Source: an uncultured Clostridia bacterium
GTDB taxonomy: Bacteria > Bacillota > Clostridia > Christensenellales > Borkfalkiaceae
NCBI GenBank assembly: GCA_947631195.1
Contig: CANRKK010000024.1
Span: 1 to 39,433 of the forward strand
DNA length: 39,433 nt
Reading direction: 5' to 3'
Shown here: positions 1,142 through 38,545 of the stretch, piece by piece
How the letters are laid out: every line of letters begins with the position of its first letter
How positions within the stretch are numbered: position 1 is the first letter of the stretch
Notes under the pieces: generated by a model
The model's database searches: none
What the model was told of the DNA's origin: nothing
What the model saw: only the letters and a program-made list of their open reading frames with translations
Program-made: the position numbers and the translations under genes

Positions 1142-1164
1142 AAAGTCAAGGAGAATTAAACACT

Positions 1165-2916: not shown

Positions 2917-2917
2917 A

Positions 2918-3795: not shown

Positions 3796-3801
3796 AAAAC
3801 T

Positions 3802-4224
3802 ATGAACAAGATATTTTTAATCGGGAACCTTACGCGGGACCCCGAAATGGCGAGCACGTCAAGCGGGAAAGGGGTGTGCAAATTCTCCCTCGCAGTGAAC
3901 CGTGCCTTTGCGAACGCGAACGGCGAGAGGGAGTGCGACTTCTTCGACGTTGTCGTATGGGGCGCCCTTGGCGATAACTGCGGCAAGTATTTAGAGAAGG
4001 GCAAGAAGGTAGGTATTGTCGGCAGGCTGCAAACGCGCACCTATCAGACCGAACGCGGCGAGAACAGGAAAGTAACGGAAATCGTCGCGGACGAGGTCGA
4101 GTTTTTAAGTCCGCGCGATCAGACTCCGGCAGAGCCAAAAGCAGCGCCGCAACAGGCAAAAAAGAACGGTGGAAAGTCGCTTCTTGAATTGGAGCCTGTC
4201 GACGATGACGACTTGCCGTTTTGA
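3802..4224 (+). CDS. ssb: single-stranded DNA-binding protein
   Basis: 140 residues. The OB fold is recognisable from MNKIFLIGNLTRDPEM, CKFSLAVNRAF, CDFFDVVVWGALGDNC, KYLEKGKKVGIVGRLQTRTY and the VADEVEFL strand. A flexible Ala/Gln/Pro linker and the acidic C-terminal tip DDDDLPF, which docks host replication partners, complete a normal-length bacterial-type SSB. Preceded by AAGGAG. Works with the annealase, exonuclease and initiator encoded around it. Confidence 0.95.
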   Translation: MNKIFLIGNLTRDPEMASTSSGKGVCKFSLAVNRAFANANGERECDFFDVVVWGALGDNCGKYLEKGKKVGIVGRLQTRTYQTERGENRKVTEIVADEVEFLSPRDQTPAEPKAAPQQAKKNGGKSLLELEPVDDDDLPF

Positions 4225-13406: not shown

Positions 13407-15158
13407 ATGGCAAAGGACAAGAACCCGTACCAAATGAATTTGATTACAGCGAACAAGACGAAGCTGTATAATCAGAACGAGTTTTGGGCTTTCAATGTCG
13501 CCAAGTATCGAGCCTTGCTTACCAACGACCCCGCTGTCATCAAATACTTCTATCGGCGCGAAGCGGCGACCTTCTTTCCGGACGTTTATAACTTGCTCGA
13601 ACTGAAACGGTCCTTTTACTACGGCGACGAACATCCGGAGAACGCCGAGGAGTTCTTCGGCATTATCCCGATGATTTGCGAGAGCGTGGCGAAAATGGTT
13701 TGCGGCGCCGGGTACGAGTTCGATATGTCTATTCGTCCCGAGATAAAGGCGCGGCTCCGGGCTATCCTCGACGACAACGAGTTCGACACGGCTATGCTGC
13801 TGCCGAGCATGATCGACAGCATAGGCATTGGCGACGGTGCTTATCACGTCAGATTTGACCCCGAAGTGAGCGACTACCCGATAATCGAGTTCGTCACAGC
13901 CGAGCGCCTGTTTCTCGTCAAGAAAGGCGGGCGCACCGTAAGCTACGGCATTAAGCAGCAAGTCATTATCAACGACGAGGAGCAGCCTTTCGAACTGCAC
14001 ACGATCTACTCCAAGCGCCGAAAGAAGTACACCAAGGGCGGGGCGGTTCGCTACCGCGACGACGGTGTGCTGCAAGAGTTCCGTATTTGGGACGGCTCGC
14101 GTTACCACGACCGCGACACCGAACTGAAAAAGACGGTGTTCGAGGCTTATGGCATAAAGCAGGAGAAGAGCGTTTTGCCTCTCGCGGACATTCCGGTCAT
14201 CTACCTACCCTGCACGCTCAACAACACGCAGGGTGCGGGTGCTTTCGGTGACGCGCGTCCTTACGGCATTGTGTTCGGGCTTGAAAGCGTTTCGTCGGCT
14301 CTCGATGAGATTTTGTCATCCTGCACCGACACCGTCCGAAAGTGCTTTCCGTTTCTACTCATCGACGAGCAGATGATACCGAGCAACCTCGAGGGCGACA
14401 AGGACAAGGGCGCGTTCTCTACACGCAAACATTCGTTCGTGCTTCCGAGGAACGCCAAGGAAGCCGAGAAGCTGCTGCAAATGATACAGTCCAAACTCAA
14501 CACCACGGAGTATGTCGAGGCGGCGAAGTTCCAAATCAACATAGCCCTCAACAAGGCAGGCATAAACGCGGCGACTCTTGGGCTGCAACTGTCCGGGCAC
14601 GTCGAAGCAGAGGCAACGCAGAACGCCAAGGAGAGAAACAGCATAAGGACCCGAAACGCCCTTGCGGCAGATTTCGAGCGCTACCTCTCCAAGCTCTTTG
14701 CGGTGCTGTTGCAATACGAGGACTACATAAACGGTAACGTCGTAGCCCGCGACCGCGCCACAGGGAATGAGGCGTTTGTCGTGGACGACTACAACGGTAT
14801 CAAAGTGTCGTTCCGTAAGTACATTGTCGACACGCCCGAAGAGGTTTCGGCAGTTCTCGCGCAGAAGGTGCAAAGCAACCTTATGAGCGTGTTTGCGGCG
14901 GTGGCAGAGCAACACCCCGAGTGGGACGAGGAAACCATTTACAAGGAAGCGAACCTCATTTATGCTCAAATGGGCGGCGGCGTTATTCAAGTCAGTGACC
15001 CGAGCAAGCCACCCGAAGAAAGCGTCGTTATGACCGAGGAAAATGCGGACGAGGGCGGCGAAGAACCCACGGACGATAAACAAGCCGAGGACGACGACAA
15101 GAGCGACGACAGCGGCTTGCAAGGCGGCGAAAAGGGCAAGGACAAGGACGATGAGTAA
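13407..15158 (+). CDS. portal protein
   Basis: 583 residues; ribosome site CAGGAG upstream. Size, position (after terminase, before scaffold/capsid) and features (an N-terminal segment, a long beta-alpha core with IWDGSRYHDRDTELKKTVFE, IPVIYLPCTLNNTQGAGAFG, and a helical stem region with VEAEATQNAKERNSIRTRNA) match phage portals. The C-terminus is very acidic and repetitive (EEPTDDKQAEDDDKSDDSG). It forms the dodecameric DNA gate for packaging and ejection. Assigned by context and size more than by a strict motif. Confidence 0.8.
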   Translation: MAKDKNPYQMNLITANKTKLYNQNEFWAFNVAKYRALLTNDPAVIKYFYRREAATFFPDVYNLLELKRSFYYGDEHPENAEEFFGIIPMICESVAKMVCGAGYEFDMSIRPEIKARLRAILDDNEFDTAMLLPSMIDSIGIGDGAYHVRFDPEVSDYPIIEFVTAERLFLVKKGGRTVSYGIKQQVIINDEEQPFELHTIYSKRRKKYTKGGAVRYRDDGVLQEFRIWDGSRYHDRDTELKKTVFEAYGIKQEKSVLPLADIPVIYLPCTLNNTQGAGAFGDARPYGIVFGLESVSSALDEILSSCTDTVRKCFPFLLIDEQMIPSNLEGDKDKGAFSTRKHSFVLPRNAKEAEKLLQMIQSKLNTTEYVEAAKFQINIALNKAGINAATLGLQLSGHVEAEATQNAKERNSIRTRNALAADFERYLSKLFAVLLQYEDYINGNVVARDRATGNEAFVVDDYNGIKVSFRKYIVDTPEEVSAVLAQKVQSNLMSVFAAVAEQHPEWDEETIYKEANLIYAQMGGGVIQVSDPSKPPEESVVMTEENADEGGEEPTDDKQAEDDDKSDDSGLQGGEKGKDKDDE

Positions 15159-24600: not shown

Positions 24601-25164
24601 GACATAATGGGGCGAGCCGACCTGTTTAATTTTAGGCTTTTTCGTAAAACAAATTGGACGCTCGCGCAAGCGCGGCGCCTTCCGTTCGCTGAAAGTATCG
24701 ACTTCGTCCCCACCGAAGCAGCGAGCGATTTTTATCTGCCGGACAGCTTGTCAATAGGCTTGGATAAAGACAACCGCGAGGCGCTATCGTTTGACTATCA
24801 GATCAACCTTTTGCAGGAGGACGAAACCTTTGTTACATACTCAAATCTTTTCGGCACAAAAGGCAGTCGGCTGCAAATGTGCTTTCTCAATGTCGAGGCG
24901 TCGCTGTTTGACGACGGAGTTCCCATAACGTCGGGGACTATTATTGCAGACGCGGTTACTTGGACTCCTGTCGACACAAGCAGGGGCGCTATCGAAATAA
25001 GAATAACGCGCCCGCAGAATATTGACGCGGACGCGGTGAAGTCGATAGTGCTGTACGAAAAGGACGGAGCCTCTAAATATGCATATATTGCAAAAAACGT
25101 GAGCAAAATGGCAAACGACAGGAAGTTCAACAGCTGGTATATTTATCCGGTATTTACTCGATAA
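21652..25164 (+). CDS. large tail hub/knob protein, 1170 residues
   Basis: One continuous frame of 1170 residues starting 1 nt after the previous stop, overlapping the reverse-strand lipoprotein gene by 11 nt at its end. The N-terminal quarter (YYWKMFLWEGGRKSTEYSRY, VYLIEASAVAQGMHVDNIAL) and the region TCLELLRKALLTCDTRVFDN resemble tail-hub (Dit/Tal-type) segments that contact the adhesin. No peptidoglycan-hydrolase motif was found. Numerous beta-strand stretches suggest several sandwich domains. It is followed by the adhesin gene, which fits a hub-and-fibre pair. Confidence 0.55.
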   Translation: MYYWKMFLWEGGRKSTEYSRYMDAPLFLEDKLDETLDSGEVILTGMPIASKSAFPPKTKFRLERYLTANFSDEPRHWDMIVEHDDVEEYAGCPELCTHRVYLIEASAVAQGMHVDNIALTYKLQDVTLNYKTLVSKTDTLEDMGKIDIRDNGYGNLPTHENPRIEIPSGEQSHTYYFINTYYYRWSTASDLKALLYEQDGREAHTISFNIPALWFQGCRYSGRWENLTQMATQTKIVRRLCNKDGSVESEETVDERICGPKSFSEQIDELWGTAKENVWVNPGSPTPDTPYIARGTQIMGYDNNDDSLIVGIKKQFSDLYTAGQGLDITKENPDAQDEAVVITTPVMSEAQLSAGMYYEYEITCTPYPNSDSRKLPIYYSRACYVLYNSYGLHQNMTTQQTDTINSNTLYVSAKFRIRDLSQSVDGDRFLASGKQYTCLELLRKALLTCDTRVFDNNSVGLDTLEYPIIIDPFWEKRLGNVKMHETTFEQKNLWEVLIQIGYYHHAIPYLEFADDGTDRFVLRFHQLGDTEIKKKDTSAKITVFNSRNLSEYFAQYDSYVTNLFSPQSEVEEWGVVKTSDSSYLVSNNTADIHTKYPIQEIVEFDISYGNGTQSALDMIFEESIYSILTPEENVRPSKACALFYKLGDTKISGLNYTPPSTNNDAPYALKTILSALFGVNPKDPKNNLQFNDIRYHIKYRTQDSLRLSQVRPNLQDFMKNSSYEVYPHHEQYFGQQDKIIDSERFSANLFGKLIRVGNAVYQRQEYVRVPGDERESGDLVEIGGEAYYVTATENEYYPDVILQKVTYSRNFNQLSNIVTIPSEPRFYEVSERSQVRREVRIMEFLLLTTKENAATINPAFMNNSKWRSIIRSLLFADSSYDMPNFAFVRFKGDKKRAHEGIPLNKLFPSTEISRASDNSVRPKDSSDHRDVIVPLMHFPLKNAIVFEWDMDDNFKAGDSIDTSISGKGGTDDAYYSMQPVRYCDIMGRADLFNFRLFRKTNWTLAQARRLPFAESIDFVPTEAASDFYLPDSLSIGLDKDNREALSFDYQINLLQEDETFVTYSNLFGTKGSRLQMCFLNVEASLFDDGVPITSGTIIADAVTWTPVDTSRGAIEIRITRPQNIDADAVKSIVLYEKDGASKYAYIAKNVSKMANDRKFNSWYIYPVFTR

Positions 25165-25942
25165 AACCCGCTGCCGCTGCTTTTGCCAAATATCCGGACA
25201 CATCGTCAAATGTTGGCTCCGTGGCGAGCGAAGCGGGCAGATACTCGGGGAAAGAAGTTCGAGTGGCATTCTCTGACGCTTTATCATTATAGGCTATGGC
25301 ATTGCGTTTAACGCTTCTTTCGGCTGCTTGCCCGGTGATATGAACTAATACATAGTTTGCGGTTTCTTCCGTATATTCACCGTTTATCTGAACGCTTTTG
25401 CCGGTGATTTCGCTGCTTATGCTTGGGGAGGCAATTAAAGACGATTGACCGTTTAACGTTTCTTCAATCTCAATACTTTTGCCGATATTATTGGCGGTTA
25501 TATCTGCGAAAATCGCGGCACCGATTTCATCAAAGGTAATTTCGACGTAATAATCGCCTTGCTCGTTCTTCCCGACCTGAATAAGAGTAATGTGTTCGTC
25601 CGTCAGAAAGGTTTCGCCTTCCAAGACAAACGAAATCGTGATCGCGCCCTCGGTCGGGAGAGAGTATTTTGTTTTTTCTTTATAATCAGCGTACCACTTA
25701 TACACTACGTCATATTCACGAAGCAAGCCGATAAGTTCTTTTTCAGCTGCGTATCGCGCTTGCCACTGAACAAAATTCGCGTAACCTTCCTCATCCGAGC
25801 GAGCGTTATTTCCGCAACCGCAAAGGGTGAGAGCGAGCAAACAACAAAGCAACCCCAAGCCTACCAGCCGAATTACTGAATGTGATAGTTTTCTAAAATT
25901 TGGCTCGGGGGGGGGGCAATTCACATACTTGTCACAATTCAT
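25154..25942 (-). CDS. SecD P1-head-like lipoprotein (moron)
   Basis: 262 residues, the only confident minus-strand protein gene. Residues 17-43: basic RK, a hydrophobic run VIRLVGLGLLCCLLALT, then lipobox LCGC with Cys43 as the likely lipidated residue. Residues 105-205 resemble the SecD periplasmic P1-head domain: YVEITFDEIGAAIFADITAN, then SLIASPSISSEITGKSVQIN and GEYTEETANYVLVHITG. Phages use surface lipoproteins for superinfection exclusion; that role is inferred. It has its own promoter, is inserted convergently between two tail genes and differs in base composition from them. A ten-base C run spans codons 9-12 (phase-variation candidate). Confidence 0.75.
   Translation of the reverse strand: MNCDKYVNCPPPEPNFRKLSHSVIRLVGLGLLCCLLALTLCGCGNNARSDEEGYANFVQWQARYAAEKELIGLLREYDVVYKWYADYKEKTKYSLPTEGAITISFVLEGETFLTDEHITLIQVGKNEQGDYYVEITFDEIGAAIFADITANNIGKSIEIEETLNGQSSLIASPSISSEITGKSVQINGEYTEETANYVLVHITGQAAERSVKRNAIAYNDKASENATRTSFPEYLPASLATEPTFDDVSGYLAKAAAAGFIE
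25907..25916. repeat. poly-G/poly-C tract of 10 in lipoprotein start region
   Basis: Ten G on the + strand, i.e. ten C on the coding strand, covering the last base of codon 9 and codons 10-12 (TGC CCC CCC CCC) of the lipoprotein. A one-base change would put the signal peptide and lipobox out of frame. No ATG lies between the tract and the signal peptide. Confidence 0.85.
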
Positions 25943-25996: not shown

Positions 25997-26018
25997 GCAA
26001 AAAAAGGAGGACTTATAA

Positions 26019-29000
26019 ATGGAAAAAAGGCAGCACGCGCTCCGGAACATAGCCTTGAAGCTGAACGTCAGCGGCACGGTTGAGGTTTTGGAGGAGCAAA
26101 GGCTCTACAAAGGCTCGTATGGCTTCGTCAAGCTACAAGTCTACGTTCCCAAGACGCAAAACACCGCGGGTCCGCTGCTCACGGCGTTTTGCACGACGGT
26201 GGACGAACTCGGGCGCGAAGTCATAAGTAGCGAGAACCACCGCCTGTGGTACGTCGACGAGTACGAACTCGGCGGCTTCGTCTACTTGCTTTTCGAGAGC
26301 CTGTTACCGCGAGAGTTTACAGAGAAGGCAACGCAGCCGGACGGCTTGAAAATCACGTTCAACTACTGCGACAGCGTCCCGATCTACGGCGACGGTGGCG
26401 AACCGTTGCTCGACACGAACGGCGTCCCGAAGCGCAAGGCGACGGACGTCCTTATATCGAGCCGATACGTCACCACGGTGTATCCGGGCGGCTGGAACGA
26501 GGACAGCAAGGAACTTGATATAAACTCGGCAGAGGCGGCGCAGATAGGGCAGAACACCCGCGACATAGCCGAATTGCAAGCCGATTTACACGGCTTTTTG
26601 AACTCGGTCGAGGAATACAGGACAGACGCCGAAAAAGCCGCGGAAGAGGCAAAGAAGGCGCAGGGTGCGGCGGAAACCGCTCGGCAGGAAACCCTCGACG
26701 CGAAGGCAGAAGTCGACAAGGCAAAGCAGGCGACAGCCGACGCGCAGAAGGCAGCTGAGAGCGCTCGGGACACCGCGGGCGGTTTTGCCTCGGACGCACA
26801 GGCGGCGCAGAGGCTTGCCGAGCAAGCGGCGAACTCTATCAACGAGCTGAATATCACGACCAAAGAGGACGCGGAGCGAGCAGAGAAGGCGCGAGAGGGC
26901 GCCGAACAAGCGGCGTCCGACGCTATAACGACCGTCGAGAGGGTGCAGACCGAATTTGAGAGTTTCCGCGAGCAGCTCGAAGGAAAGGCAGATAATCTTT
27001 ACTTCAACCCCGAGGACAACAAGCTCTACCTTATGGCGGGCGAGGAAATTATCGGGGACGGTGTCATCGTCGCAACAGGCGGCGGTGGCGGCGGTGGTAG
27101 CGGTTCGCTTACATACACCATAACGCTGAAAAACTTACTCCCCGACCGCTCGTTCTCTATTTCGGATAGCGGCGACGCGGTGCTGCGTTTCTCTTACGCC
27201 TCGGTAGACGAGGACGGAATGGACGACGGAGCGGGTGTCGGTACGGTCACGGTCGGCGGCGTGAATGTCGCAACTATAAGCGTGGCGCAGGGCGAAAACT
27301 CGTTCGACGTGCGGGAGTATCTCTCAAACGGCAGCAACACCGTGCGTATTCGCGTCGAGAACTCGGAGGGAATGACGAAGGTCCTTTCGTACACCATAAC
27401 GGTTATCGCGCTTACTATGTCCACCACGCTTGACGCTTTCGCAACTTACAGCGGCAGCGTCGTGTTCTACTATACGCCGACCGGAACAGGCACAAAGACG
27501 GTCCACTTCATTATGGACGGTAACGAGATAGGAACGCAGACGGTCGCGGCGAGCGGCAGGACGCAGTCCTTTACTATTCCCGAGCAGTCGCACGGCGGGC
27601 ATAAGTTCGAGGCATACGCCGAACTCACCGTCAATGGCGTTACGGTCAAGTCCAACACCGTTACCCTCGGTATGATTTGGGTAAGTCAGAGCACCGACCC
27701 GATATTGCAGGCGCTCTGCGAGGTTACGAAGGTAACGCAGGGCGAGGTGATCTCCATTTCGTACTTTGCCTATGACCCCACGTCCGAAACCGCGGAGGTA
27801 ACGCTTTCCATTATCGAGGAGGGCGGCGAAACCTACTTCGAGCAGAAGCTGCTCGTCGACAGAACCGAGAAGGTGTGGAACGTCGAGAACTATCCTGTCG
27901 GGAATGTTACATTCCGTATCGCGCTGGGCGACGTTCAAGAAGATATACAAATCGAGGTCGAGGACAGCGGCATAAATATCGGGCACGCGGAGGACGACCT
28001 CGTGCTGTACTTTGACCCGAGCGGCAGAAGCAACGCCGAAGCGGACCCCGCACAATGGACGGACGGAACCACTACGGCGACGTTCGAGAACGTGGGCTTT
28101 ACCGACGCCGACGGCTGGCTCAACGACGCCGACGGAAACTCCATTTTGAGGCTGCTTCCGGGCGGCAAGGTAACGCTCAACTACAAGCTGTTTGCGGGTG
28201 ATAAACGTACCAACGGCGTAACGGTCGAGGTCGAAATGGCGACGCACAATGTGCGCGACTACGACAGCATTGTTATGTCGTGCCTGTCCGGTTCTTCGGG
28301 CTACGAGCGCGGCTTCATCATTGCCTCGCAGTACGCGCAGATCGACAGCGAGCAGTCGTCGCTCTCTATGCAGTTCCGCGAGGACGAGCGCGTCCGCATA
28401 TCGTTCGTGGTCGAGCCGAGAAACCTCAACCGCCTTATTTACGTTTACGTCAACGGCATTATGTGCGGCGCTATACAGTATCCCGAGAACGACAACTTTG
28501 CGCAGAGCACGCCTGTGGACTTGACGATAGGCGCACAGTCAAGCGGTATCGACGTGTATCGCGTCTACTACTACGACCGAGGGCTTACCCGCGGCGAGGT
28601 GCTGGCAAACTTTATCGCAGACCGCCCGACGCTCCGCGAGCGTATGGACGCCTACGTCCGAAACGACATTCTCGACGAAAGCGAGGATGTAACCATTCCG
28701 AGGCTGCCTGTCACCGTGCCGTATATGATTATAGCCTGTCCGGCGCTGCCCGACTACAAGGGCGACAAAAAGACTTGCTCCATTACTTACGTCGACCAGT
28801 CCGACCCGACAAAGAGCTTTACGGCTTCGGGTGTCGAGATAGACGTACAAGGTACTTCCTCGGCGGGCTATAAGAAGAAAAATTTCAAAATTAAGCTCAA
28901 AGAGGGCTTGACATACACTTCGTCCGGAAGCAAGGACGACAAGTACAAGCTGCGCTCGAACTCCATTCCGGTGTCGACGTTCTGCATGAAGGCGGACGTC

Positions 29001-32000
29001 GCTTCTTCGGAGAGCGCGAACAACGTCGAGCTGGTGCGCCTGTATAACGACACTTGTCCTTACAAGACCCCGCCGCAAGAGGAGAACCCGCTCGTCCGCG
29101 TTGGTATCGACGGACTTCCGTGTGTGATTTTTTGGCAAAATACCGCGACGAGGCAGACGCGTTTTTGGGGCAAGTACAACTTCAACAACGACAAGTCGAC
29201 CGAGGAGGTTTACGGCTTGACCGAGGGCTGCGAGAGCTGGGAGATACTGAACAACACTTCCGAGCGCGCCCTGTTTAAGAGTTCGGACTTCTCGACCGAG
29301 GAGTGGAAAAGCGACTTCGAGGCGCGCTATCCCGACGGCTCCACCGACTATACCAACCTCAAAAAGATGATGGACTGGGTAGTGTCCACCGACCGCTCGA
29401 AAGTAAGCGGCGAGGAACAAAAGGCGGAAAGGCTGCAAAAATTCAAGAACGAGTTCGAGGAGCATTTCGTCAAAGGTCCTATGCTGTATTACTACCTCTT
29501 TACCGAGGTATTCCTTATGGTGGACAGCCGCGCGAAAAACTTCTTTCCGTCAACCTACGACGGTACGCACTGGCTCCCGCTTCCGTATGATATGGACACG
29601 GCGATCGGCATAAACAACGAAGGACAGCTCGTTTTCGATTACGACCTCGAGGACACTGACAAGGTTTCCGGCGCGAATGTGTTTAACGGACAGGACAGCG
29701 TCCTTTGGTCGAATATCCGCGACGCATTCCCCGACGAGCTGAAAGCGCTTTACCAACAGTTAAGGACGCAAACGGTATTCTCGGACGAGGAAACCGTGAA
29801 GCGCTTCGACGAACACCAAAAGGTATGGTGCGAGGCGATTTGGGACGAGGATATGTACGAGAAGTACATAGAGCCGCTCGTAAGCGACCGTGACAGTTCC
29901 TACCTCACTATGCTGCAAGGCAACAAGGCGTCGCAGCGCGAGTGGTGGCTGTTTAACGGCTTCCGCTACCGCGACAGCAAGTATCAGACCGGAAACGCCA
30001 CGAGCAACTATATAACGCTCCGTTGCTACAACAAGGGCGACATTACCATTACGCCATACTCGCACCTGTGGGCTTGGATAAAGTACGGCTCGTACAACGT
30101 AACGCAGCGCGCGAAGCGCAACACGCAGGTGACGCTTGTTTGCCCTGCGGACCAACTTTCCGACACCGAGGTGTATATCTATTCGGCGGACAGAATTGCG
30201 CAGATAGGCGACCTCTCGGGCTTGCAAGTGGGCTACGCGAACTTCTCAATGGCGACCAAACTGCAAAAGCTGAAACTTGGCGACTTCTCGCCCGAATACG
30301 AGAATACGCACCTCAACGCGCTTTACGTCGGTAACAACGACCTTTTGAACGAACTTGACATTCAGAACTGCACGGCGCTGCAAATGGCGGTCGACTTGTC
30401 CGGCTGTGCCGGGCTTGAAAAAGTCTACGCGAAGGGCAGCGCGATCGCGGGCTTGAACCTCTCGGTCGGCGGCAAGATAAAAATTCTCGAACTGCCCGAC
30501 ACGGTGACGAACTTCACCATACGCGACCAAAAGGAACTTGAACTCGTAACTTTTGAGGGCTATGACAACATAGCGACCCTGCGCGTGGAGAACACCCCGA
30601 ACGTTCCCATTGAGGAGATCGTCAACAACAGCTCGGCGCTCAACCGTGTGCGCCTTGTCGGCGTGGACTGGACGGCGACGAACGAGGAAACTTTGAGGGC
30701 GACCTTGACGAAGCTCAAATCTTGCGGCGGCTTGGACGCCACCGGAGATAACGCCGACGCTCCGGTAGTAGTCGGCACCGTTCGTGTGGAAAGCCTCGAC
30801 AGCGACGACTTCTTCACCGAAATTGCCAACGACTTCCCCGACCTCGTAGTCATAGTAAACAGTGTGGCGAACTACCTTGTCCGCTACCTCAACCACGACG
30901 GAACGCTGCTTTACTCGTACAGGGTAACGGCTGGCGCGGACGCTATCGACCCGGTATCGCAGAGGCTTATATCTGCACCAACGCGCGAGCAGACGCCGCA
31001 GGAAGCGGAGTACGGACAAAAGTTTACATACGCTGGCTTTGGGACGCTCCCGAAGAATATCCGCAGCAACACCACGATAGTGGCGCAGTACACGAGCAGC
31101 TTCCGCGTTCGCTTCTACTCGGGCGACGTGGTGTTCCAAGAAACGTGGGTAACGGAAGGCGGGCGCGTAACGCTCCCGAGCAGCGAGCCGAAGCGCGACC
31201 CCGACGTGCAGTGGACTTACACCTTCGACAGGTGGGGCGACGTTCCGCCGCGTGTCTTTGCTCCGGTGGACATTCAAGCCATATTCACGCAGGAAATCAG
31301 AAAGTATCCGGTGCACTTCTACAACTACGACCAGCTTGTTAAGACGGTGGAGGAGGTGCCCTACGGTAGCGACGTCCAAGAAGCGGATATGCCGGAAACC
31401 CCGAAAATACTTACGAGGGACAACCCCGACGACTTCCCATTCATTGGCTGGTCGCCCGAACCGAAGAATATCCAAGGCGAAACGTCGTGTTATGCGCGAT
31501 ACGACATGCACCGTGGAACTTCCGACACCCCGATTTACGGCGTCGAGTGGGATAACACAACGAGCCGCGAGATGAGGCGTACGGACGACGCTGTCGACCT
31601 CGGCTTCGCTATTGACCCCTCGACCGGACAAATCGTTTCCGACTTCGATAATCTCGCACCGTGGAACGGCGAAATCGTTACCGACGTCTACGACAATGTT
31701 TTCAAGAAGTTCCCCGCGCACTATATGCGCGTAACCTACGACAAGGACGGAAACCTCGACAGCGTGGCAGTATCGCAGGGTCCTGTCCACGGCTCCGACT
31801 GGGTCCACGTCGACGAGTTTTGGTACGCAGTTTACGGTGCTTCTACGTCCTTGCAGAACGCAAAAGAGCTTGCGAGCATATCGGGTGTGGCGCGAAAGGC
31901 AAACACGACGCGCGCGGGCTTCCGTACAGCGGCAGCGGCTATCGGGGCGGGGTATCAACAGCTTGACCTCAAACACAAGATGATTACCGTGTTCCTGTGG

Positions 32001-32567
32001 TGGATAGAATACGCCACGAAGGACGCGGACTCCATAATGAAAGGACGCAGATCGAGAAGCGGCACAGGAAAGACCGAGGAAGCCTGCACGACAGGCAATA
32101 CGGACAGTATCCCGACGCCGAGCGGCTATGTCCTTGAAACGGAGCAGATGAAGTGGCACAATATCGAGGACTTTGTCGGTAATTACTTGGAGTGGATAGA
32201 CGGTGTAACTTATGCCGGAACCTCGGGCAAGATACGCGTTTGCGACGACCCGACGAAATTCTCCGACAGTACGTCCGACGCGAACTACAAGGTGCCGAGC
32301 TATACCATACCGAGCAGCACGAACTATATCACCGCTTTCGGTTGGGACCCCGACAATCCGTTTATGTGCTATCCGACAAAGACGGTCAGCGGCGAAAACG
32401 GCTTCTGCGACTATTGCTATCCTGTAAGTTCGTCGTACCCTGTCGTTTGCTCGGGTGCTGTCTGGAACGGCTCGAGCTCGTACCTCGGCTTGGTGTACTT
32501 CAACGGCAGCTCGGCGTCGTACTCGTACTCGGATCTCGGCGGTCGCCTTCTAAAAATTCCCCTTTGA
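26019..32567 (+). CDS. giant tail adhesin, DGR target (C-type-lectin/FGE fold tip)
   Basis: 2182 residues; AAAAGGAGG before ATG. Domain order seen: 1-165 beta-rich baseplate-attachment head (BppU-like); 180-320 Ala-rich coiled coil; Gly hinge near 354; Ig/cadherin-like repeats 360-640; lectin/LamG-like 660-880; a CotH-kinase-like domain about 900-1310 (DVQGTSSAGYKKKNFKIKL near 942, LPLPYDMDTAIG near 1188); leucine-rich region about 1408-1560; three B-repeat-like units (about 1618-1830), and a C-terminal formylglycine-enzyme/C-type-lectin fold (about 1830-2182). The last 45 residues contain the DGR variable repeat. It most likely binds the receptor on the host surface. Confidence 0.85.
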   Translation: MEKRQHALRNIALKLNVSGTVEVLEEQRLYKGSYGFVKLQVYVPKTQNTAGPLLTAFCTTVDELGREVISSENHRLWYVDEYELGGFVYLLFESLLPREFTEKATQPDGLKITFNYCDSVPIYGDGGEPLLDTNGVPKRKATDVLISSRYVTTVYPGGWNEDSKELDINSAEAAQIGQNTRDIAELQADLHGFLNSVEEYRTDAEKAAEEAKKAQGAAETARQETLDAKAEVDKAKQATADAQKAAESARDTAGGFASDAQAAQRLAEQAANSINELNITTKEDAERAEKAREGAEQAASDAITTVERVQTEFESFREQLEGKADNLYFNPEDNKLYLMAGEEIIGDGVIVATGGGGGGGSGSLTYTITLKNLLPDRSFSISDSGDAVLRFSYASVDEDGMDDGAGVGTVTVGGVNVATISVAQGENSFDVREYLSNGSNTVRIRVENSEGMTKVLSYTITVIALTMSTTLDAFATYSGSVVFYYTPTGTGTKTVHFIMDGNEIGTQTVAASGRTQSFTIPEQSHGGHKFEAYAELTVNGVTVKSNTVTLGMIWVSQSTDPILQALCEVTKVTQGEVISISYFAYDPTSETAEVTLSIIEEGGETYFEQKLLVDRTEKVWNVENYPVGNVTFRIALGDVQEDIQIEVEDSGINIGHAEDDLVLYFDPSGRSNAEADPAQWTDGTTTATFENVGFTDADGWLNDADGNSILRLLPGGKVTLNYKLFAGDKRTNGVTVEVEMATHNVRDYDSIVMSCLSGSSGYERGFIIASQYAQIDSEQSSLSMQFREDERVRISFVVEPRNLNRLIYVYVNGIMCGAIQYPENDNFAQSTPVDLTIGAQSSGIDVYRVYYYDRGLTRGEVLANFIADRPTLRERMDAYVRNDILDESEDVTIPRLPVTVPYMIIACPALPDYKGDKKTCSITYVDQSDPTKSFTASGVEIDVQGTSSAGYKKKNFKIKLKEGLTYTSSGSKDDKYKLRSNSIPVSTFCMKADVASSESANNVELVRLYNDTCPYKTPPQEENPLVRVGIDGLPCVIFWQNTATRQTRFWGKYNFNNDKSTEEVYGLTEGCESWEILNNTSERALFKSSDFSTEEWKSDFEARYPDGSTDYTNLKKMMDWVVSTDRSKVSGEEQKAERLQKFKNEFEEHFVKGPMLYYYLFTEVFLMVDSRAKNFFPSTYDGTHWLPLPYDMDTAIGINNEGQLVFDYDLEDTDKVSGANVFNGQDSVLWSNIRDAFPDELKALYQQLRTQTVFSDEETVKRFDEHQKVWCEAIWDEDMYEKYIEPLVSDRDSSYLTMLQGNKASQREWWLFNGFRYRDSKYQTGNATSNYITLRCYNKGDITITPYSHLWAWIKYGSYNVTQRAKRNTQVTLVCPADQLSDTEVYIYSADRIAQIGDLSGLQVGYANFSMATKLQKLKLGDFSPEYENTHLNALYVGNNDLLNELDIQNCTALQMAVDLSGCAGLEKVYAKGSAIAGLNLSVGGKIKILELPDTVTNFTIRDQKELELVTFEGYDNIATLRVENTPNVPIEEIVNNSSALNRVRLVGVDWTATNEETLRATLTKLKSCGGLDATGDNADAPVVVGTVRVESLDSDDFFTEIANDFPDLVVIVNSVANYLVRYLNHDGTLLYSYRVTAGADAIDPVSQRLISAPTREQTPQEAEYGQKFTYAGFGTLPKNIRSNTTIVAQYTSSFRVRFYSGDVVFQETWVTEGGRVTLPSSEPKRDPDVQWTYTFDRWGDVPPRVFAPVDIQAIFTQEIRKYPVHFYNYDQLVKTVEEVPYGSDVQEADMPETPKILTRDNPDDFPFIGWSPEPKNIQGETSCYARYDMHRGTSDTPIYGVEWDNTTSREMRRTDDAVDLGFAIDPSTGQIVSDFDNLAPWNGEIVTDVYDNVFKKFPAHYMRVTYDKDGNLDSVAVSQGPVHGSDWVHVDEFWYAVYGASTSLQNAKELASISGVARKANTTRAGFRTAAAAIGAGYQQLDLKHKMITVFLWWIEYATKDADSIMKGRRSRSGTGKTEEACTTGNTDSIPTPSGYVLETEQMKWHNIEDFVGNYLEWIDGVTYAGTSGKIRVCDDPTKFSDSTSDANYKVPSYTIPSSTNYITAFGWDPDNPFMCYPTKTVSGENGFCDYCYPVSSSYPVVCSGAVWNGSSSYLGLVYFNGSSASYSYSDLGGRLLKIPL
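32431..32547 (+). repeat. DGR variable repeat (VR)
   Basis: 117 bp at the 3' end of the adhesin gene, aligned without gaps to the template repeat 210 bp downstream. There are 18 mismatches, 17 of them at template A (to G, T or C) and one at a C. They change 14 residues (for example N to Y, G, S, V, D; H to L). The invariant 3' end CTCGGCGGTCGCC is the likely initiation-of-mutagenic-homing (IMH) element. Confidence 0.95.
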
Positions 32568-32597
32568 GGGGGTGAGGGGGATACTTCCCCCTCAAAA
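32563..32597 (+). other. hairpin/cruciform just after the VR
   Basis: TTTGAGGGGG (32563-32572) can pair with CCCCCTCAAA (32587-32596). Alternatively TGAGGGGG (32573-32580) pairs CCCCCTCA (32587-32594) over a 6-nt loop. Similar hairpins after VR raise DGR homing efficiency in Bordetella phage BPP-1. No good U-tract is seen, so a terminator role is less likely. Confidence 0.65.
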
Positions 32598-32622
32598 ATA
32601 ACAACTGAATAACTTTTAGGGA

Positions 32623-32792
32623 CTTGGGGTCCAGACCGCTCGTCGAACCCTGTCGTTTACTCGGGTGCTAACTGGAACAACTCGAACTCGAACCACGGCT
32701 TGGTGTACTTCAACAACAACTCGACGTCGAACTCGAACTCGAACATCGGCGGTCGCCAATCTATCCGATTATAAATTCTTTCGGACCCCAAG
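32623..32792 (+). repeat. 10-bp inverted repeat enclosing the template repeat
   Basis: CTTGGGGTCC (32623-32632) and GGACCCCAAG (32783-32792) are perfect inverted repeats lying 8 nt before and 25 nt after the TR. In RNA they would close a loop around the template region. Possible role: folding the TR transcript or protecting it for the reverse transcriptase; this is inference. Confidence 0.75.
32641..32757 (+). repeat. DGR template repeat (TR)
   Basis: 117-bp non-coding template, no start or ribosome site. In the adhesin frame it is packed with AAC codons (10 or so Asn), the codon type that adenine mutagenesis diversifies most. It lies between the target gene and the reverse transcriptase. 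The 3' end ATCGGCGGTCGCC differs from the VR end by ATC/CTC only, the expected IMH*/IMH relation. Confidence 0.95.
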
Positions 32793-32875
32793 CTCCTTAC
32801 CACTTGGTAAAAAATAACTCGTAAAGGGTATGGTTTAGTAGGTCGCTTCTCGAAACACCATAAGAGGTATTAGAA

Positions 32876-33967
32876 ATGAAAAGAGTAGGCTTTCTTTACG
32901 AAAAGCTATACGAAATGGAAACCCTTGCCGAAGCCTTGAAACAGGCTTGCAAAGGCAAAAAGAAAACAAAGAGCGTGTGTTACGCGCTCGCGCACAAGGA
33001 GGAGTTTTTGATATGGCTTGCCGATCTCCTTAAACAGCATAAGTTCGTCCCCGGGCAGAACAGGATAAAGACTGTATTTGAACCCGCAAGCGGCAAGGTG
33101 CGTCAAATCGAAATTCCGCCCTTCCTGCCCGACAGGGTAGTACACTGGGCGGTGTGTATCGTTTTGAAACCTATCTTTATGAAAGGAATGTACCCTTACT
33201 GTATCGGCTCCGTGCCCGGGCGCGGCGGCGACAAAGGGCGCAGATACATAAAGAACATTTTGCGCCGTGACAAGAAAATCAAGTACGTTATGAAGCTCGA
33301 CATTCGGAAATTCTTTCAGTCCGTGTCGCAGGACAAGATGAAGGCGCTTTTCCGCGACAAAATCAAGGACAAGGAAATGCTCGACCTTCTCGATATGATA
33401 ATTGACGCGGGCAGTCAAGGCTTGCCGATCGGCTTCTATACGTCGCAGTGGTTCTCGAACTTCTACCTCGAAAAGGTAGACCACTTCATTAAGGAGCGGC
33501 TGCGCATTCGGTATTATGTCCGGAACGTTGACGATATGGTTATGCTTGACACGAACAAGCGCAAGCTCCACAGGGTGCTCGACGCGCTTCGGGAGTATTT
33601 GCGGGCGAACGACTACGCCGTGGAGATAAAGGACAACTGGCAGATATGGAAACTCAATTCGCGTCCTCTCGACTTCCTCGGCTTTGTTTTCTACAAGGAA
33701 AAGACGCAAATTCGCAAGCGGAACTTTTTTCGGTTCATGCGACGAGTGACCCGCGTCCGTAAGCGAGGGTATTGCACCTTGCGCGCGGCTCGCGGGATAA
33801 CGAGCGGTATCGGCTGGCTCAAACACTTGCCGCACGGACGACATTATTATCTCAACTACATTAAGCCGATAATCTCGAAAGGCGAACTCCGACGGATAAT
33901 CTCCGCGGCAGCCAAGAGGGAGAACGCCCTCAAAAAATCTATGTTAAAAGGAGCAGTAGCAGTATGA
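32876..33967 (+). CDS. DGR reverse transcriptase
   Basis: 363 residues, retroviral-type RT fold. Motif A MKLDIRKFFQSV (D142), SQGLPIGFYTSQWFSNFYL around 180-198 matching the DGR-characteristic GLPIG...SQ element, and the catalytic YVRNVDDMVML with D219-D220. Unusual Asn-Val before DD where DGR RTs usually have Tyr/Met. A C-terminal maturase-like or thumb region is basic. It copies TR RNA with misincorporation opposite A and integrates the product into the VR. Stop overlaps the next ATG. Confidence 0.9.
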   Translation: MKRVGFLYEKLYEMETLAEALKQACKGKKKTKSVCYALAHKEEFLIWLADLLKQHKFVPGQNRIKTVFEPASGKVRQIEIPPFLPDRVVHWAVCIVLKPIFMKGMYPYCIGSVPGRGGDKGRRYIKNILRRDKKIKYVMKLDIRKFFQSVSQDKMKALFRDKIKDKEMLDLLDMIIDAGSQGLPIGFYTSQWFSNFYLEKVDHFIKERLRIRYYVRNVDDMVMLDTNKRKLHRVLDALREYLRANDYAVEIKDNWQIWKLNSRPLDFLGFVFYKEKTQIRKRNFFRFMRRVTRVRKRGYCTLRAARGITSGIGWLKHLPHGRHYYLNYIKPIISKGELRRIISAAAKRENALKKSMLKGAVAV

Positions 33968-34269
33968 TCTACAAAGACGGAACAAATGAAACCATTGAGC
34001 GGCTGAAAAAGCGGCTCAATATGTCGGGCGACGTTTATATGGTCGAGGGGCAAATGGCGAACCTCGCCTCACATAAGCGGCTCTATCCCGAAAGCACGGC
34101 GACGAATATCGCGGCGGCGGAGGTTGAGAAGCTCGAATTTATGCAGCGCGAGGAAGAACAGCGTCGGCTCGAAGCCGAAAAGGCGGAAGCGGCGCGCCAA
34201 GCCGAGCATAACGAGAAAGAGGACTTGCCCGAAATCAACCCTTTTTGGGTCCCGCCCGATGAAGGGTAA
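33964..34269 (+). CDS. small coiled-coil protein coupled to the RT
   Basis: 101 residues, ATGA-coupled to the RT stop. Helical N-half (TNETIERLKKRLNMSGDVYM) and a long charged coiled coil (EVEKLEFMQREEEQRRLEAE, KAEAARQAEHNEKED) ending in WVPPDEG. DGRs usually encode an Avd four-helix protein near the RT; this does not match Avd in charge (it is acidic) but is the only candidate accessory. It may equally be a structural protein (tail fibre chaperone). Uncertain. Confidence 0.5.
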   Translation: MIYKDGTNETIERLKKRLNMSGDVYMVEGQMANLASHKRLYPESTATNIAAAEVEKLEFMQREEEQRRLEAEKAEAARQAEHNEKEDLPEINPFWVPPDEG

Positions 34270-34281
34270 GGAGGTGGGGTG

Positions 34282-34914
34282 ATGAAGTACGAACTTATAA
34301 AGAACTCGCACGCGGGGGTCATTGTCGACCCTACGCCTGTGCTGCTTGACGTAAAGGACACTTTCAAGGTGTCTTTTGTTTTGCCTCAAAGTGGCTCGTA
34401 TATCGCGCTATTTAAGGGCGAGGACGGAGTGGAACATAAGGCGGTGGTCTACGGCAGCGACGTTATCGTCCCTCGGGAGATCATCGGCAAGGAGCAACTC
34501 GTCGCTCTGACCGTGTGCCTCATCGACGAGGACAAGGTTTTGTGGGCTTGGGAGTGTCACCCGCTCAAGGTCGGCGCGTTCCTTATAATGCGCCAGCAGC
34601 AGCGGCAACTCACCGCCGGGCTTTCCGACGAACAACTGTTCGCGCGGCTTGCCGAAATCGAGCGCGTCCACGCCGAAACGCTCGCGGCGTTTGACGTGCT
34701 AAAAAGCGACTACGGCGCGCGGTGCGACGAACTCGCCCAATTTACCGAGCAAACCGTTAAGGCGCTCCAACAGCGCGAAAACGAGCTTGCAAGCCTAAAA
34801 AAGGCAAACGAGCTACTTGTCAAACACGCCAACGAGGCGACAGAGGTTATAAATACCCTTTCCAAGAAGGTATTTAACCTTGAGAAAAACTACGACCCGA
34901 CCATTATCGAATAA
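34282..34914 (+). CDS. beta-sandwich plus coiled-coil structural protein
   Basis: 210 residues; ATG 34282 preferred (GGAGGTGG 5-8 nt before; a GTG is 3 nt upstream). N-terminal beta region (KVSFVLPQSGSYIALFKGED, VVYGSDVIVPREIIGKEQLV, VCLIDEDKVLWAWECHPLKV) resembles BppU-type baseplate domains, followed by long helices (LARLAEIERVHAETLAAF-like and ELASLKKANELLVKHANEAT) suited for trimeric coiled coil. A second fibre or whisker is plausible. Confidence 0.5.
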   Translation: MKYELIKNSHAGVIVDPTPVLLDVKDTFKVSFVLPQSGSYIALFKGEDGVEHKAVVYGSDVIVPREIIGKEQLVALTVCLIDEDKVLWAWECHPLKVGAFLIMRQQQRQLTAGLSDEQLFARLAEIERVHAETLAAFDVLKSDYGARCDELAQFTEQTVKALQQRENELASLKKANELLVKHANEATEVINTLSKKVFNLEKNYDPTIIE

Positions 34915-34932
34915 AAAAGGAGGATATAAAAA

Positions 34933-35460
34933 ATGGATCAAGTTTGGGAACTCATAGCACCGTGGGTCGCCGCTCTCGGCGGCGTCACCGGCTGCGGCAC
35001 GATAATCTACGCTATCGTGCGCCTTTGCATAACGCGCATAATCAACAAGAACAGCGCCCTCATCGACAGCAAATTCAACATAAACGACTTTGCAAACGCG
35101 GTCGCCAAGGCTCTTGCGGGCAAGACGCTTAATATCGACGTTACCGCGGTTACGGAGAAAGCACTCAAAAAGACCGCGAACGCGCTCGACGACAGAGTGG
35201 AGAAGGTGGAGAAAAATGTCGCTCTGCTTGTCCCGATATTGCTTGCTATCGCAAAGGCAATACTCCGACTGAAAGCGCTGTCCGATGACGAGCGCAAGGA
35301 ACTTTCCGGCGCTATTACGGCGCTGTCCGGGGAGAAGCTCAAACCGAGGGACGACGAAGTAATGACTGTGCTGCTGGATCCTGTGTCGCTCCCGGAGGAG
35401 CCGACCGACGAGGAGAACGGCGACAACGTCGGAGTAAACTTCGGAGGGCTTGATGAATGA
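34933..35460 (+). CDS. membrane-anchored protein, possible holin partner
   Basis: 175 residues. One clear TM near residues 8-32 (APWVAALGGVTGCGTIIYAI), then a soluble helical domain and a second hydrophobic segment (VALLVPILLAIAKAILRLK). Acidic C-terminal tail. AAAGGAGG upstream. Position after fibre genes fits lysis genes or a membrane component. Confidence 0.5.
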   Translation: MDQVWELIAPWVAALGGVTGCGTIIYAIVRLCITRIINKNSALIDSKFNINDFANAVAKALAGKTLNIDVTAVTEKALKKTANALDDRVEKVEKNVALLVPILLAIAKAILRLKALSDDERKELSGAITALSGEKLKPRDDEVMTVLLDPVSLPEEPTDEENGDNVGVNFGGLDE

Positions 35461-35945
35461 AACTTACTAAAAAGCGGGTGATATTCTTCATCCTGCACTG
35501 CCTTTTTTCCGCAGTCGTGCCTATCGCGCTTGTAATAGCGCGATATAGCACGATCGGGAACACCGGACAAGCGGTCGGCTTCAAGGTGTCGATTACCGGT
35601 ATCTTGCTTTTGATATTCGTCTTTTGGGTGATTAAGAAGCTGTTTATCGACAGGCGCCTCGACGATCTGAAGCAGCAAGGCAATGTTATGCTTGCAGAAC
35701 TCAAAACGGAAACCGACCCCGCCAAGCTCGCCAACATTGAAAAGGCGTTGAAGTCCGTAAAAACTATTGAGGCGATTTTCAGCAGTGTTATACCTATGCT
35801 GTTTATCGTGGCGGGCATTGTGGCGTTTAAGGCGCTCGAAGCGCAACTTATCAAGTTATCCGCGACGCTCGGCTTTATCGCTGTGAGCTACTTTATCGGG
35901 CTTATCTTCGATATTCTCTACTCACGCGAGATACACCATAAATAA
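35457..35945 (+). CDS. multi-span membrane protein (holin-like)
   Basis: 162 residues overlapping the previous stop. Four hydrophobic segments: FFILHCLFSAVVPIALVIAR, TGILLLIFVFWVIKKLF, FSSVIPMLFIVAGIVAFKAL and LGFIAVSYFIGLIFDILYSR. Short charged loops. Holin role is suggested by length and place in the genome, but topology with a long soluble loop in the middle is unusual for a holin. Confidence 0.5.
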   Translation: MKLTKKRVIFFILHCLFSAVVPIALVIARYSTIGNTGQAVGFKVSITGILLLIFVFWVIKKLFIDRRLDDLKQQGNVMLAELKTETDPAKLANIEKALKSVKTIEAIFSSVIPMLFIVAGIVAFKALEAQLIKLSATLGFIAVSYFIGLIFDILYSREIHHK

Positions 35946-35954
35946 GGAGGTACT

Positions 35955-36917
35955 ATGGAAACGGACAAAAAAGAAACCTTGGCTGCATTGACGAACGTCA
36001 GAAGCCGCTTCAACTTCCGACAGTTCTTTATGGTCAGCGTGGTGCTGTTCGCCACTGCTGCCGACGTGCTTATCGACTATGTCACCGCGGGCTTTGACCC
36101 CGCTATCTTTTCGCAGGCGAGCTACTGGATAACCCTTGCGATCACCTGCCTTTCGGTGGTCTTTGTGGTCCTCTCGGTGCGCGACTTCTTCCGCGAGAAG
36201 GAACTGCGGGAGAACTCCGACATATTCGGCACGCAAAAGAAGATAGACGGAGCGCACACCGAGCTGATAAATCACGACCTTGCGACGCGCTTCGAGGACT
36301 ATGTCAACGAGATAAACGCCGCGCGGAAGCTGAAAGCCTACACGGAGTATCTACAATTCAAGCTCTCGAAAATCACGAAAGAGCAGAAGCGGGCGAAGTG
36401 GCAGAAGCTGCTCGACAACGCGGCGACCGACATTTCGTTTCTCCCGGTCAAAGGGAACTTTATTCGGCTGTCGCCGTTCAAGCGCATACACTTTTCGCGC
36501 GTCCGCATAGCGACGATATTCTCCCGAATGGAGCACGTCTACGGCGATGACGACGATATGGAAGCGCACGAGCAGCGCCACGTCAGCGGGCTGCTGTTTA
36601 AGAAGGTGGCAATGCTTATGGCGTTCTCTATGGCGTTTTCGACGCTGTTCTTCCAGCCGGGCGCGTTCTCCGTGGCTATCCTCGTAAACACCTTCACGAA
36701 GCTGTTCCGCACGGCGATGAGCGTAATGCTCGGCGCCACGGACGGTCAAGACTTCGCGCGCGGCACCTTGCTCTCGAAGATGAAGCTGCGCCTCGACTTT
36801 ATTCAGAAATTCCTCGAGGCGGAGAAGTCCAAGCGAGCGACGGTCGAGGAACAGCCGCAAGAGAGTAGGCTTCCGGCGGTCATCTCTCCGCGCCCTATGG
36901 GCTTTGGCGATAGGTGA
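35955..36917 (+). CDS. membrane protein of 320 residues
   Basis: Two TM near the N-terminus (FFMVSVVLFATAADVLIDYV; WITLAITCLSVVFVVLSVRD), a long helical soluble part (KIDGAHTELINHDLATRFED, KAYTEYLQFKLSKITKEQKR), and two TM toward the C-terminus (MLMAFSMAFSTLFFQPGAFS). Resembles no named family that I can identify. Coupled to the two preceding membrane genes as a three-gene membrane set; could form a pore or a host-envelope contact. Confidence 0.55.
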   Translation: METDKKETLAALTNVRSRFNFRQFFMVSVVLFATAADVLIDYVTAGFDPAIFSQASYWITLAITCLSVVFVVLSVRDFFREKELRENSDIFGTQKKIDGAHTELINHDLATRFEDYVNEINAARKLKAYTEYLQFKLSKITKEQKRAKWQKLLDNAATDISFLPVKGNFIRLSPFKRIHFSRVRIATIFSRMEHVYGDDDDMEAHEQRHVSGLLFKKVAMLMAFSMAFSTLFFQPGAFSVAILVNTFTKLFRTAMSVMLGATDGQDFARGTLLSKMKLRLDFIQKFLEAEKSKRATVEEQPQESRLPAVISPRPMGFGDR

Positions 36918-37537: not shown

Positions 37538-38545
37538 ATGAAAGGCGTAAAATTTACGGCAAAAGAAAAGAAGCGCGCCCTTGAAATGTGGCTCGTCGAA
37601 AAGAAGCACTGGCTTTACGTTTGCAAGAAAATGCGCTGCACTCGCGTGAGCCTGTGGCGGTGGAAAACGCAGTACGACGGAACGCTCGACAGCTTGACGA
37701 ACCGTTCGAGCCGACCGCTGACGCCGCACCCGAACTCGCAGACCGAGCAGGAGAAAAACGACATTATGCGGCTGTACGCCGAGGACCCGACGCGGAGCTA
37801 TACCGAACTGTACGGCGAACTCCGCGCCCGCTGCGCATACTCGCGCCACTATATGACTATGTATAAGTTTATACGTCGGCAGAACTTCCAGCCCGCCGAA
37901 ATCATCCGGCGCGTTTCGCAGCCTTATGATACACCCGAAATGCTCGGGCAGAAATGGCAAATGGACGTTAAGTTTGTCCCGCGCGAGTGTTATGTGGGCG
38001 CCGAGCCTTACAGGCGATCGTTCCAATACACAATGATAGACGAGGCGACGCGGGAGCGGTTCATCCGCGCTTATTCCGAGCACAACGGAAACGCGACCAA
38101 GGACTTCATTATGCGCGCGATCGTTTACTTCGGCTATCTCCCGGTCACTATTCAGACCGACAACGGCGCGGAGTTTACCTATCCGCGCGGCGAGGCGGAG
38201 AAGATACATATCGTCGACGAAACGCTGCAACAGTTCGGCATACGCCACCAACTCATCAAGCCGAGGACCCCGCGGCACAACGGCAAGGTGGAGCGGTCCC
38301 ACCGAACCGACCAAGAGCGCTTTTATAACTTCCTGCAATTCTCGACCTTTGACGAGCTTCAAGAGAAAATGTCACAGTGGCTCGTCCGGTACAACAGCAC
38401 GCCCTCGACGGCGCTCCGGGACAAGGACGGTCGCCGGGCAATGCAAAGTCCGCTCGATAAGCGCGCCGAGCTTTTGGAACTGCTACAAAAGAGAACGGAC
38501 GTTCAAGTTCGCTTTTTGGAAAAGAGCAAGCGGTCGGCTGCATAA
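37538..38545 (+). CDS. DDE transposase/integrase (IS481-like rve core)
   Basis: 335 residues; AGGAATAA upstream of ATG. N-terminal HTH (FTAKEKKRALEMWLVEKKHW, RVSLWRWKTQYDGTL). Catalytic core: D143 in WQMDVKF, D208 in TDNGAEF, E252 in PRHNGKVERSH, spacing 64 and 43 residues, with the IS481 hallmark RTPRHNGKVER. No ATPase (MuB-type) partner is seen. It may be an inserted IS or the phage's own integrase; no tyrosine or serine integrase is visible elsewhere. Confidence 0.85.
   Translation: MKGVKFTAKEKKRALEMWLVEKKHWLYVCKKMRCTRVSLWRWKTQYDGTLDSLTNRSSRPLTPHPNSQTEQEKNDIMRLYAEDPTRSYTELYGELRARCAYSRHYMTMYKFIRRQNFQPAEIIRRVSQPYDTPEMLGQKWQMDVKFVPRECYVGAEPYRRSFQYTMIDEATRERFIRAYSEHNGNATKDFIMRAIVYFGYLPVTIQTDNGAEFTYPRGEAEKIHIVDETLQQFGIRHQLIKPRTPRHNGKVERSHRTDQERFYNFLQFSTFDELQEKMSQWLVRYNSTPSTALRDKDGRRAMQSPLDKRAELLELLQKRTDVQVRFLEKSKRSAA

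What the first reader, a model, noticed from the sequence alone, without database searches (positions are those of the whole stretch)
32431..33967. Complete diversity-generating retroelement at the tail adhesin tip
VR (32431-32547) and TR (32641-32757) align over 117 bp with 18 differences, 17 at template adenines, giving 14 amino-acid changes. An RT with DGR-type GLPIG...SQ follows. This is direct evidence for adenine-specific mutagenic retrohoming into the receptor-binding end of a 2182-residue fibre.
Basis: seen in the sequence. Interest (0 to 1): 0.85.

Follow-up and report, generated by a model that had tools for sequence, protein, structure and literature searches.

The report
Phage receptor-diversifying retroelement, accessory gene undetected
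A phage of a gut-type bacterium carries an ordinary diversity-generating retroelement that rewrites the tip of its long fibre protein; comparing it with relatives shows a base-paired RNA clasp around its template copy and an unusual residue in the catalytic centre of its reverse transcriptase.

Summary

Tools added four things. (1) The TR-RT spacer is Rfam RT-18; all 32 viral relatives checked carry it in that place. (2) A long-range helix (32618-32632 / 32783-32797) closes the template. It covaries across 136 lineages (z 31.8), and its 5' strand typically ends a few nt before the TR. (3) No Avd was detected. (4) The catalytic box is NVDD, not YxDD. Asn appears three separate times on the tree, and there A-to-C changes are rare (3 of 79 against 23%). 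That last point is post hoc and only suggestive. Whether the helix is already published could not be checked.

The parts
26019..32567 (+). target gene, 2182-aa fibre-like protein; the VR is at its 3' end
   Evidence: ORF; PHROG matches, five of unknown function and one weak 'tail fiber protein' match, E 0.00014
31506..32564 (+). C-terminal variable-protein domain (C-type-lectin / FGE-like fold)
32430..32547 (+). variable repeat (VR)
32536..32547 (+). 12-nt GC-rich run identical in VR and TR at their 3' ends, in the place of the IMH (name recalled)
32573..32594 (+). perfect 9-bp hairpin with 4-nt loop, 25 nt after the VR, just past the stop codon
   Evidence: 86 of 136 relatives have a stem of 7 bp or more there
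32618..32632 (+). 5' strand of the TR-closing helix, AGGGACTTGGGGTCC, ending 7 nt before the TR
32640..32757 (+). template repeat (TR)
32783..32797 (+). 3' strand of the TR-closing helix, GGACCCCAAGCTCCT
32798..32876 (+). structured RNA, Rfam RF03021 RT-18 (59.9 bits, cut-off 41.3), starting at the base after the helix
32876..33967 (+). DGR reverse transcriptase, 363 aa
   Evidence: RVT_1, phrog_1423, best PDB match 8ub7, tree
33419..33448 (+). GLPIGFYTSQ motif (residues 182-191)
33524..33535 (+). NVDD catalytic box (residues 217-220); YxDD in 159 of the 169 RTs looked at

Best explanation
This is a phage diversity-generating retroelement. Steps shown by sequence: a TR with its VR copied at adenines, a DGR RT, a C-Lec-like target end, an RT-18 RNA and a covarying helix around the TR. 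Steps inferred from the known mechanism and from relatives: the non-coding stretch from about 32618 to the RT start is transcribed; the RNA folds so that the helix brings the ends of the TR together beside the RT-18 domain; the RT binds this RNA without any detected Avd, primes near the 3' spacer and copies the TR, misincorporating at adenines; the helix 5' strand, close to the TR start, limits how far the copy runs; the cDNA replaces the VR, guided by the identical GC-rich 3' end and the downstream hairpin. The fibre tip thus varies at up to about 14 seen residues, most simply to change which receptor the phage binds.
For: 17 of 18 VR/TR differences at TR A. In relatives, 139 of 168 loci gave an adenine-tolerant repeat near the RT, and 131 of them passed a stricter filter (132 with BPP-1). 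In 7 pairs with no RT difference in 900 nt and differing VRs, 88 of 90 differences are at TR A; over all 23 pairs with near-identical TRs it is 221 of 229 (the pairs share loci, and the scan favours A mismatches). The fold matches solved DGR variable proteins. The best PDB match of the RT is 8ub7 at 107.6 bits, against 48.6 for the next, a group II RT; 8ub7 is the BPP-1 RT (full-length match of 1-328 at 765.5 bits). Helix: 136 lineages, own-partner mean 25.4 against 16.4, 0 of 20,000 permutations; VR flanks as control z 0.7; independent set of 48, z 12.8. RT-18 between TR and RT in 32 of 32.
Against: No reads of this sample, so no variation was seen in this phage itself. No Avd. NVDD instead of YxDD could mean altered or lost activity; the existing VR shows past copying only. 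The predicted fold of the whole RNA is not unusually stable (z -1.65; 13 of 200 shuffles as good). In BPP-1 the helix alone is not significant (19.5, below the 95% null of 23.5), and 35 of 136 lineages do not fit the GGG/TCC register.
Confidence: 0.95

Rival explanations
1. A DGR that worked in the past but is now inactive: the RT carries Asn in place of the catalytic-box Tyr and the VR is a frozen footprint.
For: NVDD box; no close relative with a different VR was found for this phage.
Against: The RT ORF and both catalytic Asp are intact. Other N-box lineages also have TR/VR pairs with 7-19 A changes. L049 and L116, both NIDD, have near-identical TRs and 16 of 16 VR differences at TR A, so the N box does not stop diversification there.
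Confidence: 0.12
2. The TR-flanking inverted repeat is a DNA element (for example a cruciform or a transcription terminator/antiterminator) and not part of the template RNA.
For: Covariation shows pairing but cannot tell DNA from RNA; G-U pairs would be tolerated in either.
Against: G-T/T-G cells are common at several pairs (for example 15 G-T of 101 at pair 10), and pair 3 is G-T in 101 of 101, though the register forces that. It adjoins an Rfam RNA family at fixed spacing.
Confidence: 0.12
3. Chance or ordinary gene duplication with drift: the repeat is a decayed duplicate, not a DGR.
For: None beyond the existence of one non-A difference.
Against: P about 6e-12 for the A bias; DGR RT and variable-protein fold alongside.
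Confidence: 0.01

Closest known systems
Levilactobacillus phage LBR48 and related Bacillota phage/prophage DGRs
   Same: RT 43% identical; RT-18 RNA before the RT; N-box RT; prophage relatives L115-L117 have TR/VR pairs
   Different: Asn arose separately on the tree; in LBR48 itself no TR/VR pair was found in the stretch fetched
Bordetella phage BPP-1 DGR
   Same: VR at the 3' end of the receptor-binding gene, TR then RT on one strand, adenine-only mismatches (19 A, 0 other), an Rfam RNA in the TR-RT spacer (RF03022)
   Different: BPP-1 has Avd between target and TR and YMDD; RT 29% identical; different Rfam family; helix not significant there by itself
Acholeplasmatales MAG locus L112
   Same: nearest RT found (52%) and target C-terminus 38% identical; TR/VR pair 15 A / 1 other
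   Different: YIDD box
Rfam RT-18 (RF03021)
   Same: window matches the full model above cut-off
   Different: the Rfam match starts after the 3' strand and includes neither strand of the TR-closing helix
TaqVP (5vf4), TvpA (2y3c), Mtd (1yu3)
   Same: fold of the target C-terminus
   Different: 15-16% identity over the aligned residues; here it caps a 2182-residue protein

Membership tests
Diversity-generating retroelement | TR/VR pair whose mismatches lie at TR adenines | tested here: met
   17 of 18, P about 6e-12
Diversity-generating retroelement | RT of the DGR class, (I/L)GxxxSQ motif (motif recalled) | tested here: met
   GLPIGFYTSQ; phrog_1423 RT 323.7 bits; grouped with RTs that have TR/VR pairs, 100/99 support for a 5-row set
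Diversity-generating retroelement | VR at the 3' end of a target gene, C-Lec fold | tested here: met
   VR ends 20 nt before the end of the ORF; fold
Diversity-generating retroelement | GC-rich initiation-of-mutagenic-homing end and hairpin after the VR (recalled from BPP-1 work) | tested here: met
   12 identical nt; 9-bp hairpin. Relatives: 90 of 136 with at most 1 of 30 shuffles reaching the observed hairpin
Diversity-generating retroelement | Avd or other accessory protein (common, not universal; recalled) | tested here: not met
   No Avd in the window ORFs by BPP-1 Avd, none in G000 by PF22296 with BPP-1 ringing in the same call. Models found Avd only in BPP-1, so they may be too narrow
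Diversity-generating retroelement | present activity in this phage | not testable with these tools
   needs reads of the sample
Rfam RT-18 (RF03021) | score above the gathering cut-off | tested here: met
   59.9 against 41.3 bits
Group II intron | intron RNA domains around the RT | tested here: not met
   the only Rfam match at the gathering score in the window is RT-18; NCBIfam group II RT model 96.8 bits, far below its cut-off of 300
Retron | RT of a named retron family with its ncRNA | tested here: inconclusive
   retron St85 model 57.6 bits against cut-off 235; no Rfam retron RNA at the gathering score; no retron was put on a tree

The most novel reading that the evidence does not exclude
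In DGRs of this kind the extent of the template is set by RNA architecture: a covarying helix closes the template RNA, ends within a few nt of the TR start and stops cDNA synthesis there, while the RT-18 domain next to its 3' strand positions the RT in place of Avd. In addition, a Tyr-to-Asn change in the catalytic box, made three times, narrows the mutation spectrum by suppressing dG opposite template A (A-to-C changes 3 of 79 against 23%).
Probability: 0.35. Interest if true: 0.65.

Novelty: new member of a known kind. Interest (0 to 1): 0.42.

Why it matters
The DGR itself is one of many; Roux et al. 2021 report over 30,000 (PMC8144416, abstract and part of Results seen). What could matter is general: Rfam RT-18 can be read as the 3' part of DGR template RNAs; a helix supported by covariation predicts where the mutagenised copy ends and can help find TRs without using the VR; and natural Y-to-N variants offer a comparison for how a DGR polymerase chooses the wrong base.

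Tried and rejected
Rejected: decayed duplicate (A bias); group II intron; remote second VR in the assembly (none).

Led nowhere: RT as a single query found no relatives in viral contigs or genome contigs. No phage record is similar at DNA level to window 26000-36000. PDB sequence search of the fibre end gave only antibody chains and an RNase at E 0.015-0.4, taken as chance. No direct terminal repeat at the six lengths tested. Whole-RNA folding energy is not striking. No further N-box lineage came from two more viral scans. A search of 398 genomes of the phylum found RT-18 in 4 of 398, 3 over the cut-off. A tree with other RTs of the same host genus was of little use: several 'other' rows are themselves DGR-like or misread frames, and BPP-1 fell among them.

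Spectrum claim, points against it: it was noticed after the fact. Per-locus A-to-C fractions are overdispersed (chi2/df 1.46), and 5 deduplicated Y loci with at least 7 changes also have none. The window alone (1 of 17) is not significant. L244, one of the three lineages, is a long branch. Lineage tests: Mann-Whitney p 0.012, resampling p 0.001.

Literature: the only paper read was Roux 2021 (PMC8144416): outline and abstract, part 1 of 3 of Results, the section on activity, and passages by term; its main text holds no match for 'Avd', 'Rfam', 'secondary structure', 'structured RNA', 'accessory', 'YxDD', 'hairpin', 'stem' or 'inverted repeat'. One paper search was answered (a listing only). 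PMC8155183 was a wrong guess at an identifier. The BPP-1 RNA-protein structure paper (recalled: Handa et al., Nature 2025) and the RT-n RNA paper (recalled: Weinberg et al. 2017) could not be read, so I do not claim that the helix or the RT-18/DGR link is unpublished.

Full report
Observation. Window 32430-32547 (VR) and 32640-32757 (TR) are found as a 118-nt repeat without any adenine assumption. They differ at 18 positions: 17 are adenines in the TR, one is TR C / VR T at 32534, and no difference falls at a VR adenine. With 29 A in the 118 TR positions the chance is about 6e-12. The differences give 14 amino-acid changes. One repeat pair was found in the host assembly.

Reverse transcriptase. 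32876-33967, RVT_1, phrog_1423, GLPIGFYTSQ. Its nearest solved sequence is 8ub7, which is the BPP-1 RT. Relatives: 80 viral loci and 80 genome loci (both lists were capped at 80), then 38, 45, 9 and 80 loci from later viral scans, with overlaps. Of the first 168 loci (160 plus 8 from the window, phages and one host-genus genome), 139 gave an adenine-tolerant repeat pair near the RT; many of the rest are cut off at a contig end upstream of the RT. On the tree the window is with L112 (52%) and L040 in a starred set of 3.

Activity in relatives. Among loci with near-identical TRs there are 23 pairs; their VRs differ at 229 positions, 221 of them at TR adenines. In 7 pairs with no difference in 900 nt of RT and differing VRs it is 88 of 90. 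Pairs share loci and the scan tolerates A mismatches more than others, so these are not clean rates. Over 105 deduplicated loci, 1696 of 2835 TR adenines are changed to G, T or C, against 79 of 8819 other positions (same caveat).

Spacer RNA. 32798-32876 is Rfam RT-18, 59.9 bits against a cut-off of 41.3. In relatives RT-18 is found in 35 of 38 records, 33 over the cut-off, and in 21 of 36 of a second, broader set, 15 over it (one record is shared with the first set). For the 32 viral records of the first set, all of which matched, the hit lies on the RT strand between TR and RT in 32 of 32. BPP-1 has RF03022 there instead. The 14 control genomes of those searches gave none.

TR-closing helix. 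AGGGACTTGGGGTCC (32618-32632) pairs with GGACCCCAAGCTCCT (32783-32797). Test: for 136 lineages (193 eligible loci, deduplicated) the best stem between the 45 nt before and the 60 nt after the TR scores 25.4 on average, against 16.4 when partners are exchanged (z 31.8; 0 of 20,000). The same test on the VR flanks gives z 0.7. Own partner is the best of 136 in 43 lineages and in the top 5% in 84; the window's rank is 1. In those 84 the 5' strand ends a median 4 nt before the TR (64 within 10 nt; 7 nt in the window), and the 3' strand starts a median 22 nt after the TR. Pair by pair, 101 of 136 fit a GGG/TCC register, which fixes pairs 1-3. Pairs 4 and 7-14 are paired in 82-92%, against 43-60% for exchanged partners; G-C, C-G, A-T and T-A all appear among the listed types at pairs 4 and 7-11 and at 12 and 13. 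Pairs 5 and 6 are weak, 53-54%. An independent, more distant set of 48 lineages gives z 12.8, own partner best in 14. The helix is in both the minimum-energy and the centroid fold of the window RNA, but the overall energy is unremarkable.

No Avd. The spacers between VR, TR and RT leave no room for one. BPP-1 Avd finds nothing in window ORFs of 40-400 aa. The curated Avd models find only BPP-1 in 39, 36 and 40 records searched, the last including the host assembly (the sets overlap and many records are fragments). As these models also find none in more distant DGRs, they may be too narrow; 'no detectable Avd' is the safe wording.

Catalytic box. NVDD in the window. Of 169 RTs first examined, 159 have YxDD, 7 NxDD, 1 IIDD and 2 could not be read. 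Asn needs three changes on a tree of 140 RTs, all three forced by starred branches (quick method, L244 a long branch). Among distinct TR/VR pairs, A-to-C is 3 of 79 A changes for 6 N-box loci and 760 of 3359 (22.6%) for 214 Y-box loci. By lineage: 1 of 17, 0 of 43 and 2 of 19, against a mean of 0.229 (Mann-Whitney p 0.012, resampling p 0.001). This is post hoc, overdispersed and rests on three lineages; IIDD and FMDD loci look normal (9 of 42 and 4 of 13). I treat it as a lead.

Mechanism and odds. DGR: 0.95. That the helix is an RNA element that bounds the copied stretch: inferred from its place and covariation, not shown. That Asn alters the spectrum: suggestive only.

Comparison with print. 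Roux et al. 2021 (PMC8144416; parts seen are listed under Tried and rejected) describe six DGR lineages, three of them mostly in phages, the near-universal adenine bias and C-Lec targets; the present locus fits that picture. I could not reach the BPP-1 RNA structure paper, and from recall it may already describe pairing around the TR.

Noticed in passing
window 25154-25942, - strand: Minus-strand ORF between two long plus-strand ORFs (ending 25164 and starting 26019): 262 aa, a hydrophobic N-terminal stretch with a cysteine that looks like a lipoprotein signal (by eye), and a SecDF P1 head subdomain match (PF22599, 62.9 bits). Possibly a phage-carried lipoprotein gene.
   Followed up: partly
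window 37538-38545: rve-family integrase/transposase ORF near the end of the contig; phage-borne or inserted not resolved.
   Followed up: no
window 629-4224 and 13407-15158: HTH_3 regulator (629-1141), ERF-like recombinase (1416-2042, just above cut-off), SSB (3802-4224) and portal protein (13407-15158): a phage or prophage setting.
   Followed up: partly
L025:3858-3974 and L006:793-1018: Rfam RT-4 and RT-2 RNAs lie between TR and RT in these DGRs, and RF03022 lies there in BPP-1, so several Rfam RT-n families may be DGR spacer RNAs.
   Followed up: partly
loci (105 deduplicated): Non-adenine TR/VR differences gather near the TR 3' end: 31 of 79 lie within the last 9 nt, many C-to-T, as expected if the VR keeps its own 3' end; the window's one such difference is 14 nt from the end.
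   Followed up: partly
L022:1-821 (LBR48): No TR/VR pair was found although RT and RT-18 are present; the VR may be missing or lie at the other end of the linear record.
   Followed up: no
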